From: Baekduia soli
Lineage (GTDB): Bacteria; Actinomycetota; Thermoleophilia; Solirubrobacterales; Solirubrobacteraceae
Assembly: GCF_007970665.1 (NCBI RefSeq)
Contig: NZ_CP042430.1
Coordinates: 2,976,001-3,040,000, forward strand
Direction: 5' to 3'
DNA: 64,000 nucleotides
Positions 32,735-36,868 of this stretch are shown here, one piece after another. Positions within the stretch are counted from its first letter, which is position 1; each line of letters begins with the position of its first letter. Below the pieces are notes generated by a model that worked only from the letters and a program-made list of their open reading frames with translations, searched no databases and had not been told where the DNA came from. The position numbers and the translations under genes are program-made.

Positions 32735-32821
32735 CAGGACGTGGGTCGGCCGGTCCGACGGCGTCGCGCAGGGGGTGTGGACGAACGGGCGACGCCCGGC
32801 CCTGGCATGATCCGCCGCCGA

Positions 32822-33187
32822 ATGCGGCTCTTCGCCCTCCGAGGCGCGATCACGGTCGACCGGAACACCGCGCAGGCGATCCTGGGTGCGACGGAGTTGC
32901 TCATGCGCGAGATCATGGAGCGCAACGACCTCGTGCCCGAGGACGTGGTGAGCTGCCTGTTCACGCTCACGGAGGACCTCGACGCCGAGTTCCCCGCCGT
33001 GGCGGCGCGGGGCCTGGGGTTCGGGCAGGTTCCGCTCATGTGCGCACGTGAGGTGCCGGTGCCGGGCTCGCTGCCGCGGGTGATCCGGGTGATGATGCAC
33101 TACCACGCCGCCGACGATCACACCGCCCGGCACGTGTACCTCGGCGAGGCCAGGTCGCTGCGCCGCGACCTCGACTCGGCGCAGTGA
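32822..33187 (+). CDS. aroH: Chorismate mutase, AroH type
   Basis: A 121-residue monofunctional chorismate mutase (chorismate to prephenate) of the trimeric Bacillus AroH fold. Key segments are LRGAITVDRNTAQAI, MERNDLVPEDVVSCLFTLTEDLDAEFPA, and IRVMMHYHA followed by RHVYLGEA, whose residues build the active site. The ATG at 32822 gives the usual start; ATG 32807 is an alternative. A CATGAT box lies 10 bases upstream of 32822. It heads the aromatic block and is followed by hisC after about 50 bases. Confidence 0.93.
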   Translation: MRLFALRGAITVDRNTAQAILGATELLMREIMERNDLVPEDVVSCLFTLTEDLDAEFPAVAARGLGFGQVPLMCAREVPVPGSLPRVIRVMMHYHAADDHTARHVYLGEARSLRRDLDSAQ

Positions 33188-33234: not shown

Positions 33235-34335
33235 ATGGCGATCGAGTTCTCCGCGGCCGTCCGCCGCATCCCCGTCTACCCCGCGGCCGCCGCCTACGCG
33301 CTGCCCGAGGACGTCGCGCTCCTGGCCTCCAACGAGTCCCCGGAGCCGCCGATCCCGGCGGTCGTGGCCGCGGTCCAGGCCGTGCTGACCGGCGTCAACC
33401 GCTACCCCGACCCCACCAACAGCAAGCTGCGCGGCGCGCTCAGCGACCGCTACGACGTGCCGGCCTCGCGCATCGCGATCGGCAACGGATCGTGCGACAT
33501 CCTGCTCGCCGCCGGCGAGGCGCTGCTGGAGCCCGGGGCCGAGGTCGTCTACGCCTGGCCGTCGTTCAGCGTCTACCCGCACATCTCGGCGGCGACCGGC
33601 GCCACGGCGATCCAGGTGCCGCTCAACGACCGCCACGAGCACGACCTCGAGGCGATGCTCGCCGAGATCACGGTGGCCACCCGGCTCGTCGTCGTGTGCA
33701 ACCCGAACAACCCGACGTCGACCGCCCTGCCGCTGGCCGACGTCGCGGCCTTCGTCGAGCGGGTGCCGCCGCACGTCTGCCTGCTGCTCGACGAGGCCTA
33801 CTGCGAGTACAACATGCTCGACGACCCCGATGCGTCGATCGCGCTGCTGGCCAGGCACCCCAACCTGGTGCTCCTGCGGACCTTCAGCAAGGTGTACGGG
33901 CTCTGCGGGCTGCGGGTCGGCTACGCGCTGTGCGGAAGCGACGCGTTCGTCACCGCGGTCAACCAGGTCCGCCAGCCCTTCTTCTGCAACGCCGCCGCGC
34001 AGGCCGCCGCGACGGAGGCGCTCAAGCACTCCGACGCCGTCGCCCAGCGGGTCGAGCGGGCGATCATCGCGCGGGTCGAGCTCGAGGACGGCCTGGCGGA
34101 GCTGGGCATCCGCGCGGCCGAGTCGCAGGCCAACTTCGCCTGGTTCGACCTGCCCGTCGACGAGGACGCCGACCCGGCCGAGGCCGAGCGCGACATCGTC
34201 CGCACCCTCGGCGAGCGCGGCGTGCAGGTCCGCGCCGGCACGGCGCTCGGCCGCCCAGGCGCGCTGCGGGTCACCTACGGCACCCCGGAGCAGAACGCGC
34301 GGTTCCTGCGCGAGCTGGGAGATCTGCTCGCCTAG
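33235..34335 (+). CDS. hisC: Class I aminotransferase, HisC-like
   Basis: A 366-residue PLP-dependent enzyme. The PLP lysine is K219 in TFSKVYGLCGLRVGY. LASNESPEPP, NRYPDPTNSKLRGAL, IGNGSCDILL, CNPNNPTS and DEAYCEY all match the histidinol-phosphate aminotransferase subfamily. Because it lies between chorismate mutase and DAHP synthase rather than in a his operon, it may serve as the aromatic aminotransferase that makes phenylalanine and tyrosine. HisC enzymes in some bacteria do both. A strong hairpin ends the unit. Confidence 0.85.
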   Translation: MAIEFSAAVRRIPVYPAAAAYALPEDVALLASNESPEPPIPAVVAAVQAVLTGVNRYPDPTNSKLRGALSDRYDVPASRIAIGNGSCDILLAAGEALLEPGAEVVYAWPSFSVYPHISAATGATAIQVPLNDRHEHDLEAMLAEITVATRLVVVCNPNNPTSTALPLADVAAFVERVPPHVCLLLDEAYCEYNMLDDPDASIALLARHPNLVLLRTFSKVYGLCGLRVGYALCGSDAFVTAVNQVRQPFFCNAAAQAAATEALKHSDAVAQRVERAIIARVELEDGLAELGIRAAESQANFAWFDLPVDEDADPAEAERDIVRTLGERGVQVRAGTALGRPGALRVTYGTPEQNARFLRELGDLLA

Positions 34336-34351
34336 GGCTCGCGCCGGCCGG

Positions 34352-34390
34352 ATGGCGCGTTGGTGGGGCATGACCCCACCCAGGCGCCAT
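34352..34390 (+). terminator. Long hairpin terminator after hisC
   Basis: Outer arms ATGGCGC (34352-34358) and GCGCCAT (34384-34390) and inner arms GGTGGGG (34362-34368) and CCCCACC (34374-34380) form a nested hairpin 16 bases after the hisC stop. It separates the aroH-hisC unit from the leader of the DAHP synthase. Confidence 0.65.
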
Positions 34391-34500
34391 CGAGTCCCCG
34401 GCGGGGCCCGGGCCCCGACGGCCCGCGCGTTCGCGCCCGCGCCGCCGGCGCCCGTCCCCGCACGCCCGCGGCGCGTGTCTGCTTCAATACCTCCCGCCTG

Positions 34501-34605
34501 ATGTCCCGCCCCGTCGACACGCGCGCTCCTCACGCCGGCCCCACGGCCGCCGCGCGCGCTGCCGTGGGCGTGGACCTTGCTGCTTGGTATTGGCGATTTA
34601 GCTAG
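34501..34605 (+). CDS. Aromatic leader peptide (34 codons)
   Basis: A short frame from ATG 34501 to TAG 34603-34605, ending AAWYWRFS. Trp, Tyr, Trp and Phe codons lie at 34585-34593 and 34597-34599, right before the stop. That makes all three aromatic amino acids control codons for a gene that starts their synthesis. The stretch from CTT at 34576 (CTT GCT GCT TGG TAT TGG CGA TTT AGC) uses AT-rich codons such as TAT, TTT and CGA that are rare in the neighbouring genes. The start may be leaderless from an ATACCT box 8 bases upstream (34487-34492); the in-frame GTGs near 34564 and 34570 are alternatives. The last base of the stop begins the downstream RNA stem. Confidence 0.65.
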   Translation: MSRPVDTRAPHAGPTAAARAAVGVDLAAWYWRFS

Positions 34606-34683
34606 GCGCTCGGCCGGCCGTGAGGCCGTGTCCGCACCGGACCCCTCGGGTCGAGCGCCGAAGCCACGCTGGCGCGTGCCAGC
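34605..34683 (+). promoter_or_regulatory. Attenuator-like RNA structures before the DAHP synthase gene
   Basis: An 8-bp stem GGCGCTCG (34605-34612) / CGAGCGCC (34652-34659) encloses two small perfect hairpins (CGGCC-GTGA-GGCCG, 34615-34628; GTCCG-CAC-CGGAC, 34630-34642). A further hairpin GCTGGC-GCGT-GCCAGC (34668-34683) follows. GCGCC (34655-34659) can instead pair with GGCGC (34671-34675), which breaks both the first stem and the last hairpin. A ribosome stalled on the aromatic codons would cover 34605-34612 and favour the alternative. No T-run follows the last hairpin. Confidence 0.55.
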
Positions 34684-34696
34684 ACGCATCGCCACC

Positions 34697-34702
34697 TAGA
34701 CT
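34697..34702 (+). promoter_or_regulatory. Possible second promoter for the DAHP synthase gene
   Basis: TAGACT lies 29 bases before the ATG at 34732. If active, it would bypass the leader peptide. A good ribosome site, AAGGA (34720-34724), lies 7 bases before the ATG, so this gene is translated from a leadered mRNA. Confidence 0.35.
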
Positions 34703-34731
34703 CCAAGACCAAGCACCAGAAGGAACACAAG

Positions 34732-35778
34732 ATGATGATCGTGATGAAGCCGACGGCCACCGACGAGCAGGTGCAGGCCGTCATCGAGCGGATCGAGTCC
34801 GTCGGCGCGCAGGCCCACCCCAGTCGCGGGGAGGAGGTCACCGTGATCGGCGCGATCGGCGACCGCGAGCACGTCGCGCGCCTGGGCCTGGAGGGCCACG
34901 AGGGCGTCGAGAAGGTCGTCCCGATCCTCAAGCCCTACAAGCTGGCCTCGACCCAGCTCAAGGGCGAGGCCCGCACGGTGCTGGAGATCGGCGGCCGGCG
35001 AATCGGCGGCGACCACTTCGCCCTCATCGCCGGCCCCTGCACCGTCGAGACGCGCGACCAGACGCTCGACACCGCCGACGCGATGCTGGCCGCCGGCGCC
35101 ACGATGTTCCGCGGCGGCGCCTACAAGCCGCGCACGTCGCCCTACGCGTTCCAGGGCCTGGGCCAGGAGGGCCTGCGCCTGCTCGCCGAGGCCAAGGAGC
35201 GCACCGGCCTGCCGATCGTCACCGAGCTCATGGACGCCCGTGACATCGAGGCCGTCGCCGAGGTCGCCGACGTCATCCAGATCGGCGCGCGCAACATGCA
35301 GAACTACCCCTTGCTGAGCGAGATCGGCCGCAGCGGGATCCCCGTGCTCATCAAGCGCGGGCTCTCGAGCACGCTCGAGGAGCTCATCATGGCCGCCGAG
35401 TACGTCCTCAAGGAGGGCAACGAGGCCGTCATGCTCTGTGAGCGCGGCATCCGCACCTTCGAGACCGCCTACCGCTTCACGCTGGACCTCACGGCGATCC
35501 CCGTGCTCAAGGAGATGACGCACCTGCCCGTCGTCGTCGACCCCAGCCACGCCGCCGGGCGCCGCGCGCTCGTTGAGCCCCTGTCGCTCGCCGCCGCGGC
35601 CGCGGGGGCCGACGGCATCATCGTCGAGTGCCACCCCGAGCCCGACGAGGCGATCTGCGACGGGCCGCAGCAGCTGCGCGTCGACGGGTTCGCCGAGTAC
35701 GCGGCCAAGGTCGAGCAGGCCGCGATCCTCGGCGGCAAGCTGCCCTTCGGCGCCACCGCCGCGGCCGCCCGGGCGTGA
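34732..35778 (+). CDS. aroF: DAHP synthase, type I-beta with N-terminal regulatory domain
   Basis: A 348-residue 3-deoxy-D-arabino-heptulosonate-7-phosphate synthase (PEP plus erythrose-4-phosphate), the first step of the shikimate pathway. Residues 1-75 form a ferredoxin-like domain (MMIVMKPTATDEQVQAVIER) as in the Thermotoga-type enzyme, where it mediates feedback inhibition. The catalytic barrel has IAGPCTVETRDQ, RGGAYKPRTSPYAFQG, IGARNMQNYPLL, VLIKRGLSST and VVDPSHAAGRR. It is preceded by the aromatic leader and structured region, so both transcript and protein may respond to aromatic amino acids. Its stop overlaps tyrA by GTGA. Confidence 0.95.
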   Translation: MMIVMKPTATDEQVQAVIERIESVGAQAHPSRGEEVTVIGAIGDREHVARLGLEGHEGVEKVVPILKPYKLASTQLKGEARTVLEIGGRRIGGDHFALIAGPCTVETRDQTLDTADAMLAAGATMFRGGAYKPRTSPYAFQGLGQEGLRLLAEAKERTGLPIVTELMDARDIEAVAEVADVIQIGARNMQNYPLLSEIGRSGIPVLIKRGLSSTLEELIMAAEYVLKEGNEAVMLCERGIRTFETAYRFTLDLTAIPVLKEMTHLPVVVDPSHAAGRRALVEPLSLAAAAAGADGIIVECHPEPDEAICDGPQQLRVDGFAEYAAKVEQAAILGGKLPFGATAAAARA

Positions 35779-36868
35779 GCGACGGCGCGGCGGGCGCGGG
35801 CCCGCCGCTGCGCCTCGCCCTGCTCGGCATCGGGCTCATCGGCGGCTCGGTCGGGCTGGCGGCGCGCGAGCGGCTCGGTGCGCACGTCACGGGGTGGGAC
35901 CCCGACCCCGCCGTGCGCGACCGCGCCCTGCAGCGCGGCGTGGTCGACGCGGTCGTCGCCCAGCCCTCCGCGCTGGGCCCGCCGACGTCGCGCTCGTCGC
36001 GTCGCCCGTCGATGCGCTGCGGGTCACCGTCGACGCGGCCTGCGCGGCCTGCGACGGCGCGGTCGTCACCGACGTCGGCTCCACGAAGCGCGCGCTCGTC
36101 GAGCACGCGCCGATCGAGCGCTTCATCGGCGGCCACCCGCTGGCCGGGGCCGAGGTCGCCGGCGTCGAGCACGCCCGCGCCGACCTCTTCGACCAGGCCA
36201 CCTGGTACCTCACGCCGCGCCCCGGCAGCCCGGGCGTGCTGCTCGAGCGCCTGCACCGCTTCGTCGCCGGGCTCGGCGCGGTGCCGACCGTCATCGGCCA
36301 CGCCGAGCACGACCGGCTCATGGCCGCCTTCTCGCACGTCCCTCACGTCATCGCCAACGCCATGGTCGTGCAGGCCACGCGGGCGCTGGGCGGCGAGGCC
36401 ATCCCGGTCGTCGGGCCCAGCTTCCGCGACGCCACCCGCGTAGCGGGCGCCAACCCGCCGCTGTGGGCCGGCATCTACGCGTCCAACCGCGAGGCCGTCC
36501 TCGCCCAGCTCGACGCCACCATCGACGTCCTGGCGCAGGCCCGTGCGCTGCTGGCCCAGCCCGACGGCCGCGACGCGCTGGAGGCCTGGCAGGCACAGGC
36601 CGCCGAGCAGCGCCGCGCGCTGCTGGACGTCGGCATGACCGGCGGCCCGCTGCGCGAGATCCGCGCGGTCGTGCCCAACCGTCCCGGCGTGATCGCCGAT
36701 CTCGCCCTCACCCTCAGCGCCGCGGGGATCAACATCCACGACATGAGCCTCTCGCCCCAGCCCGACTTCCGCAGCGGCGAGGTCGCCCTGTGGGTGGCCG
36801 AGGCCCTCGAGCCGCGCGCCCGCGAGCTCGTCGGCGACGTCCTCGCCCGACCGGAGGACGCCGCATGA
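35775..36868 (+). CDS. tyrA: Prephenate dehydrogenase with ACT domain, frameshifted by one base
   Basis: NAD(P)-dependent enzyme of tyrosine synthesis. The first frame gives the Rossmann start LALLGIGLIGGSVGLAARE and continues to QPSALG. At GGGCCC (35975-35980) the frame breaks and the expected ADVALVASPVDALRVTV follows in another frame. It then runs through DVGSTKRALVEH, FIGGHPLAGAE and FSHVPHVIANAM to an ACT domain (VVPNRPGVIADLALTL) and TGA 36866-36868. One added C restores 364 residues. The start is GTG 35775 in GTGA; the stop overlaps aroA by ATGA. Error in the sequence is the likeliest cause. Confidence 0.88.

What the first reader, a model, noticed from the sequence alone, without database searches (positions are those of the whole stretch)
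34501..34605. Leader peptide with all three aromatic amino acids before DAHP synthase
A 34-codon frame ends AAWYWRFS-stop, placing Trp, Tyr, Trp and Phe codons directly before the stop, ahead of the gene for the first aromatic pathway step. The frame starts after a terminator that isolates it from hisC. It becomes AT-rich exactly at the control codons (TAT, TTT and CGA in a very GC-rich setting), which suggests selection. A single peptide able to sense all three products would be neat. Ribosome-mediated attenuation of a DAHP synthase gene is, to my recollection, known in Corynebacterium (aroR-aroF), so the principle has precedent; this W-Y-W-R-F version may not be described.
Basis: partly seen in the sequence, partly recalled or inferred. 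Interest (0 to 1): 0.88.

Follow-up and report, generated by a model that had tools for sequence, protein, structure and literature searches.

The report
Aromatic leader peptide controlling DAHP synthase
Just before the gene for the first enzyme of aromatic amino acid synthesis, a whole order of soil bacteria keeps a tiny gene rich in Trp and Tyr codons whose RNA appears to fold back and hide the enzyme gene's ribosome-binding site, so that ribosomes slowed by amino acid shortage would switch the enzyme on.

Summary
Frame 34501-34605 encodes MSRPVDTRAPHAGPTAAARAAVGVDLAAWYWRFS*. I collected 101 distinct orthologous leaders from the same order. In the ten codons before the final Arg-Phe there are on average 3.7 aromatic codons in frame, against 0.40 and 0.13 in the other frames, and every leader has Trp and Tyr. 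The element sits directly upstream of DAHP synthase even where a different, non-orthologous DAHP synthase type occupies the locus.

The classical transcription-attenuation reading is not supported. None of the 101 leader-to-gene regions contains a run of five T, and no terminator is found here. The RNA instead has a near-invariant core, CGAUUUNNYUAG, fused to a covarying hairpin (P1). The control-codon region also pairs with the ribosome-binding site of the DAHP synthase gene (stem P0): the SD is paired to the leader in 63% of predicted folds, against 36-40% with swapped or codon-shuffled leaders.

Best reading: a near-leaderless leader peptide acting by ribosome-controlled translational attenuation, the control codons doubling as anti-SD. 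It works like the actinobacterial LEU element, at a different gene and with its own RNA core. It is a new variant of a known kind; the mechanism is inferred, not tested at the bench.

The parts
34480..34488 (+). Candidate extended -10 promoter element TGCTTCAAT; places the transcript start a few bases before the leader ATG ((near-)leaderless mRNA)
   Evidence: An extended -10 (TGNT[AT][CA]AA) lies 0-20 nt upstream of an in-frame leader start in 59 of 101 elements versus 0.06 on average in shuffled sequence; own copy listed. Start site itself inferred.
34501..34605 (+). Leader peptide ORF MSRPVDTRAPHAGPTAAARAAVGVDLAAWYWRFS, stop TAG 34603-34605
   Evidence: conserved in the order, in-frame aromatic enrichment
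34585..34593 (+). Control codons Trp-Tyr-Trp (TGG TAT TGG)
   Evidence: every one of 101 relatives has Trp and Tyr codons at this place
34594..34605 (+). Near-invariant RNA core CGATTTAGCTAG (consensus CGATTTNNYTAG), codons Arg-Phe-Ser-stop
   Evidence: exceptions (NNA/NNG in four loci, CGAACC in L239)
34575..34597 (+). P0 5' arms: CCUU 34575-34578, UGCUUGGU 34581-34588, UGGCGAU 34591-34597 (control-codon region acting as anti-RBS)
   Evidence: Minimum-energy fold of the locus, z -3.5, 0 of 200 shuffles as stable; matched-versus-swapped tests
34605..34615 (+). P1 5' arm GGCGCUCGGCC, starting at the last base of the stop codon
   Evidence: (covariation)
34616..34627 (+). P2 hairpin (34616-34619 with 34624-34627), variable among relatives
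34630..34642 (+). P3 hairpin (34630-34634 with 34638-34642), variable among relatives
34649..34659 (+). P1 3' arm GGUCGAGCGCC
   Evidence: 97.8% of cells paired, 4 pairs with changes on both sides; slid controls 34-49%
34668..34683 (+). P4 hairpin GCUGGC-gcgu-GCCAGC, no T tract; not present in all relatives
34688..34723 (+). P0 3' arms: AUCGCCA 34688-34694, ACCAAGCA 34708-34715, AAGG 34720-34723 (within the Shine-Dalgarno AGAAGGA 34718-34724)
34732..35778 (+). Regulated gene: type I-beta DAHP synthase (3-deoxy-7-phosphoheptulonate synthase)
   Evidence: NCBIfam NF006421 471 bits and TIGR01361 370 bits, both over cut-off

Best explanation
It is a leader-peptide attenuator that acts on translation of the DAHP synthase gene. 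A promoter a few bases before the leader ATG makes a transcript that starts with, or almost with, the leader ORF. After the leader is translated and the ribosome leaves, its last codons (Ala/Trp/Tyr/Trp/Arg/Phe) fold back and pair with the ribosome-binding region of the DAHP synthase gene (stem P0), closed over hairpin P1, so little enzyme is made. When charged Trp or Tyr (or Phe) tRNA is short, the ribosome stalls on the control codons. Its footprint then covers the 5' arms of P0 but stops just short of P1, which begins in the stop codon. P0 cannot form, the Shine-Dalgarno is free, and DAHP synthase is made. Shown by computation: the conserved leader, its in-frame aromatic codons, the near-invariant core, P1 with covariation, absence of T-tract terminators, linkage to DAHP synthase of either type, promoter position, and P0 pairing above controls. 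Inferred: stalling, the direction of regulation, the footprint geometry, and that translation rather than transcription is controlled. The reason for the fixed CGAUUU beyond its part in P0 is not explained.
For: In-frame aromatic codons 3.73 per ten versus 0.40/0.13 out of frame, Trp and Tyr in 101 of 101. One element per genome in 144 of 399 genomes of the class, 141 of them in the same order. Of 71 loci inspected, 68 have a DAHP synthase in the locus, 41 of type I-beta and 27 of type I-alpha; the two types barely align (28% over 92 aa) and fall in different NCBIfam families, so the element follows the function rather than the gene. Paralogous DAHP synthases at 57-66% identity elsewhere lack it. 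P1: 97.8% of cells paired, 37 cells changed on both sides, versus 34-49% paired when slid. Own-locus fold pairs SD bases AAGG with leader CCUU and ACCAAGCA with UGCUUGGU, z -3.5. SD paired to the leader in 63% of minimum-energy folds versus 40% with swapped and 36% with codon-shuffled leaders (about eight standard deviations); 11.7 versus 8.3 leader-paired bases in the RBS region. Best 12-nt complementarity is higher for the true leader than for swapped ones, P = 2.5e-5. Within the genus, GCUUGG pairs with CCAAGC in four species, and CCUGGU with ACCAGG in the fifth (L101). Predicted SD openness rises from 0.39 (free RNA) to 0.52 with a ribosome on the control codons and 0.43 with one on the stop (P = 1e-6 for free versus stalled). 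No run of five T in any of 101 intergenic regions. Near-leaderless promoter spacing in 59 of 101 versus 0.06 in shuffles.
Against: P0 is not equally clear everywhere: 37 of 101 predicted folds do not pair the SD with the leader, and its register differs between lineages. The gain in SD openness on stalling is moderate and rests on a simple footprint model. The near-invariance of CGAUUU is stricter than P0 pairing needs, since the partner sequences differ, so part of the mechanism is missing. No expression, transcript or ribosome data exist here. Rho-dependent termination was not tested.
Confidence: 0.68

Rival explanations
1. Classical ribosome-mediated transcription attenuation with an intrinsic terminator, as in trp operons and as reported for aroR-aroF of Corynebacterium.
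For: Leader peptide with cognate codons upstream of the first pathway gene; a review describes transcription of the aroF operon rising when ribosomes stall on Phe/Tyr codons in C. glutamicum aroR (PMC11802643).
Against: No terminator-like site in 34300-34800; no T run of five in any of 101 leader-to-gene regions and none with six T in eight; P1 is followed by mixed sequence.
Confidence: 0.06
2. Rho-dependent attenuation: the leader and C-rich intergenic RNA expose or hide a Rho loading site depending on where the ribosome stands.
For: High-GC intergenic RNA without intrinsic terminators; Rho was proposed for mycobacterial cys leaders lacking terminators (PMC1262725).
Against: Does not predict the matched pairing between leader and RBS nor the conserved P1; intergenic regions as short as 78 nt including the stop leave little room.
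Confidence: 0.12
3. The RNA core (CGAUUUNNYUAG plus P1) is a binding site for a regulatory protein or a small ligand, with the leader peptide secondary.
For: Conserved nucleotides that are not fully explained by pairing; a protein was suggested for the LEU element (PMC1262725).
Against: In-frame Trp/Tyr codons in all relatives would have no purpose; P2/P3 sequences are not conserved; no Rfam family matches.
Confidence: 0.1
4. Nascent-peptide arrest: the peptide end W-R-F-x stalls the ribosome in response to a free aromatic compound, as in TnaC.
For: W-R-F-x-stop is strongly conserved.
Against: The conservation is of nucleotides, using the rare codons CGA and TTT; the residue after Phe varies (Ser, Ile, Thr, Arg, Leu, Met), W is replaced in L106/L111/L104 and F in L239.
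Confidence: 0.04

Closest known systems
LEU element upstream of actinobacterial leuA (Seliverstov et al. 2005, PMC1262725)
   Same: Leader ORF with a run of cognate codons; base stem formed by pairing of those codons with the Shine-Dalgarno of the first pathway gene; no terminator; high-GC Actinobacteria.
   Different: Other gene and amino acids; LEU has a conserved pseudoknot, none was seen here; here a CGAUUUNNYUAG core and P1 helix starting in the stop codon are conserved. That paper reports no conserved RNA structures for phenylalanine or tyrosine operons.
aroR-aroF attenuator of Corynebacterium glutamicum (Neshat et al. 2014, as cited in PMC11802643; leader seen in PMC4046766)
   Same: Leader peptide with aromatic codons in front of a DAHP synthase gene.
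   Different: Control run there is Phe-Tyr-Phe and the effect is described as transcription attenuation; here Trp and Tyr are constant, no terminator exists, and the RBS is paired to the leader.
Polycysteine leaderless ORFs upstream of cys operons in mycobacteria (Canestrari et al. 2020, as cited in PMC9031893)
   Same: Leaderless short ORF in Actinobacteria; ribosome speed on cognate codons described as controlling translation of downstream genes.
   Different: Cysteine, single residue type; different genes. Original paper not held, so details were not compared.
trpL-type classical attenuators of Corynebacterium and Streptomyces (PMC1262725)
   Same: Leader peptide with Trp codons upstream of an aromatic pathway operon.
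   Different: Those have antiterminator and terminator with poly-U; absent here.

Membership tests
LEU element | Leader ORF with run of codons for the pathway product | tested here: met
   Aromatic instead of Leu codons
LEU element | Base stem between control codons and downstream Shine-Dalgarno | tested here: met
   63% of folds versus 36-40% in controls, own locus; not clear in all relatives
LEU element | Conserved pseudoknot inside the base stem | tested here: inconclusive
   Only nested helices P1-P4 seen; the tools used do not predict pseudoknots
LEU element | Located upstream of leuA | tested here: not met
   Gene is DAHP synthase
Classical transcription attenuator (trpL, aroR type) | Leader peptide with cognate control codons | tested here: met
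Classical transcription attenuator (trpL, aroR type) | Intrinsic terminator with T tract before the structural gene | tested here: not met
Ribosome-controlled translational attenuator | RBS of the main gene sequestered in a structure that a stalled ribosome would prevent | tested here: met
   By prediction:
Ribosome-controlled translational attenuator | Ribosome stalls on the control codons when the amino acid is short | not testable with these tools
   Needs ribosome profiling or toeprinting
Known Rfam family (T-box, riboswitch, amino acid leaders) | Match to a curated covariance model | tested here: not met
   12 loci, only two chance matches below threshold
TnaC-like arrest peptide | Peptide sequence conserved with free synonymous change | tested here: not met
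   Codons CGA and TTT fixed, following residue variable

The most novel reading that the evidence does not exclude
A movable regulatory cassette specific to the function 'DAHP synthase': a near-leaderless leader ORF whose Trp/Tyr/Phe control codons are also the anti-Shine-Dalgarno, fused to a near-invariant RNA core (CGAUUUNNYUAG plus P1, using codons that are rare in the genome) that does a further job, such as setting ribosome pausing or release at the rare CGA-UUU codons or a tertiary contact. It was kept across an order while the enzyme it controls was exchanged for a different DAHP synthase type.
Probability: 0.4. Interest if true: 0.75.

Novelty: new variant of a known kind. Interest (0 to 1): 0.64.

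Why it matters
It would be a regulator of entry into aromatic amino acid synthesis in a bacterial order with almost no genetics, and a clear case where the same codons serve as sensor and as the RNA arm that hides the ribosome-binding site. Retention of the element across replacement of the enzyme shows selection on control of the step rather than on the gene. The near-invariant CGAUUUNNYUAG-P1 core is a concrete, testable puzzle, and the covariance model gives an immediate annotation rule, one element per genome.

Tried and rejected
Rfam search of 12 loci: nothing. Intrinsic terminator: none here or in 101 relatives. The idea that leader TGGCGAT pairs with the single downstream ATCGCCA in all species: seen in the own genus and some others (e.g. 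L176), not general; the partner changes by lineage. P1 as a terminator: no T tract. Search for the core elsewhere in the own genome: unique. Search across 396 genomes of the phylum: only the same order, no hit with the backward control pattern. Weak covariance-model hits G489 and G603 (L227, L228) are false, without leader or DAHP synthase. Phage collection: no match. Papers on leader peptides in Thermoleophilia: none held.

Full report
What was checked. The window lies in a 5.2 Mb single-contig genome. The nearest named relatives by DAHP synthase are Conexibacter and other Solirubrobacterales metagenome-assembled genomes. Frame 34501-34605 is present as stated and ends TGG TAT TGG CGA TTT AGC TAG. 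The downstream gene 34732-35778 is a DAHP synthase of the B. subtilis-like type I-beta (NF006421, TIGR01361). hisC (33235-34335) lies upstream, and prephenate dehydrogenase and aroA lie downstream.

Conservation. I took the region upstream of DAHP synthase orthologues in about 100 relatives. Nearly all orthologues in the same order carry a short ORF ending with an aromatic-rich run and then W-R-F-x-stop; DAHP synthase paralogues in the same genomes and distant homologues in other phyla do not. Alignment shows that the end is conserved as nucleotides: CGATTT, two free bases, Y, TAG, GCG. The pattern used to find it allowed any CGN codon, TTC and any stop, and only CGATTT and TAG occurred in the 58 aligned cases. 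A covariance-model search later found four loci with NNA or NNG before the stop, and one with CGAACC, so the core is near-invariant rather than absolute. CGA and TTT are rare codons here (4.3% of Arg, 0.9% of Phe).

In-frame aromatic codons. In 101 distinct elements the ten codons before CGA contain 3.73 aromatic codons in frame versus 0.40 and 0.13 in the other frames. All have Trp and Tyr; 46 have an additional Phe. This is the signature of a translated sensor, and shows that Trp plus Tyr, not all three, is the constant set.

Distribution and linkage. A covariance model from 50 sequences finds exactly one element in each of 144 of 399 genomes of the class, 141 of them in three families of the same order. 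In 396 genomes across the phylum it finds 12, all in that order. The search used only sequence and P1, not gene context. Of 71 loci inspected, 68 have a DAHP synthase in the locus: 41 type I-beta and 27 type I-alpha of the E. coli AroFGH kind, two types that barely align and belong to different NCBIfam families. In G025 (L176) the order hisC, leader, type I-alpha enzyme is read directly. The element has therefore stayed while the enzyme was exchanged. Several relatives with small genomes (1.6-2.1 Mb; G018, G029, G045, G052, G058) keep a type I-beta enzyme but have lost the element.

RNA anatomy. P1 starts with the last base of the stop codon (GGCGYYCGGYC) and pairs with GRCCGRGCGCC some 20 to 80 bases on. 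Over 50 sequences 97.8% of cells pair, four pairs change on both sides in 37 cells, and slid registers give 34-49%. P1 encloses variable hairpins P2 and P3. There is no T run of five anywhere between leader and gene in 101 elements, and no terminator-like site in this locus. The hairpin before the leader, 34351-34391, also lacks a T tract.

The long-range stem. In the minimum-energy fold of this locus (-75.5 kcal/mol, z -3.5, no shuffle as stable) the leader pairs with the DAHP synthase ribosome-binding region: CCUU 34575-34578 with the SD bases AAGG 34720-34723, UGCUUGGU 34581-34588 with ACCAAGCA 34708-34715, and UGGCGAU 34591-34597 with AUCGCCA 34688-34694. Relatives do the same with other sequences, for example L090, L103, L113, L219 and L250 with 9 to 12 consecutive or near-consecutive pairs. 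In the own genus the leader GCUUGG with CCAAGC in four species is replaced in L101 by CCUGGU with ACCAGG. Controls: the SD pairs with the leader in 63% of folds with the true leader, 40% with a leader swapped in from another species and 36% with codon-shuffled leaders; leader-paired bases in the 34-nt RBS region are 11.7 against 8.3; 12-nt complementarity exceeds swapped leaders with P = 2.5e-5. The pairing is not visible in all loci, and its register varies.

Promoter. An extended -10 element TGNT[AT][CA]AA lies 0-20 nt upstream of an in-frame leader start codon in 59 of 101 elements, most often with 8-10 nt between hexamer and start, against 0.06 on average in shuffles. The own copy is TGCTTCAAT at 34480-34488. 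The leader is therefore probably read from a (near-)leaderless transcript of its own; this, not a terminator, would separate it from hisC.

Mechanism. With a footprint of about 17 nt upstream to 12 nt downstream of the A-site codon (general knowledge), a ribosome waiting at W29, Y30 or W31 covers about 34568 to 34603. That hides all three P0 5' arms and stops just before P1 at 34605. A ribosome at the stop covers the P1 5' arm instead. Folding with these positions blocked raises mean SD openness from 0.39 to 0.52 for stalled ribosomes and 0.43 for a ribosome at the stop. The model is therefore: shortage of charged Trp or Tyr tRNA, stall, P0 blocked, SD free, DAHP synthase made; ample supply, ribosome leaves, P0 forms, synthesis low. 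Stalling and direction are inferred.

Comparison. The LEU element (PMC1262725) has the same logic: control codons pair with the Shine-Dalgarno of the first pathway gene and no terminator is present. It sits at leuA and contains a pseudoknot, so this is not a member but works like it. aroR of C. glutamicum has a Phe-Tyr-Phe leader at a DAHP synthase gene, described as transcription attenuation. Leaderless polycysteine ORFs in mycobacteria are a precedent for leaderless sensors (original paper not held). No Rfam family matched, and no paper in the library joins Thermoleophilia with leader peptides; that library is partial, so an earlier report cannot be excluded.

Open point. The core CGAUUU is more constant than P0 needs, because its partner differs between lineages. 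A decoding effect of the rare CGA and UUU codons, or a contact not seen in secondary structure, could explain it; neither was tested.

Noticed in passing
35573-36868: The prephenate dehydrogenase frame lacks its N-terminus: the glycine-rich start (GIGLIGGSVG) lies in another frame from about 35775, so the gene appears broken by a frameshift (sequencing error or real).
   Followed up: no
34351-34391: Strong hairpin (GATGGCGC...TGGTGGGG/CCCCACC...GCGCCATC) right after hisC without a T tract; its role is unknown.
   Followed up: partly
L010, L016, L118, L119, L131, L132, L135: Small-genome relatives (1.6-2.1 Mb) keep the type I-beta DAHP synthase but have lost the leader element.
   Followed up: partly
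L021-L027, L152-L171: Second DAHP synthase paralogues (57-66% identical) in several genomes of the order have no such leader.
   Followed up: partly
32741-33187: Frame that by eye resembles an AroH-type chorismate mutase, upstream of hisC; would make the region chorismate mutase-hisC-leader-DAHP synthase-tyrA-aroA.
   Followed up: no
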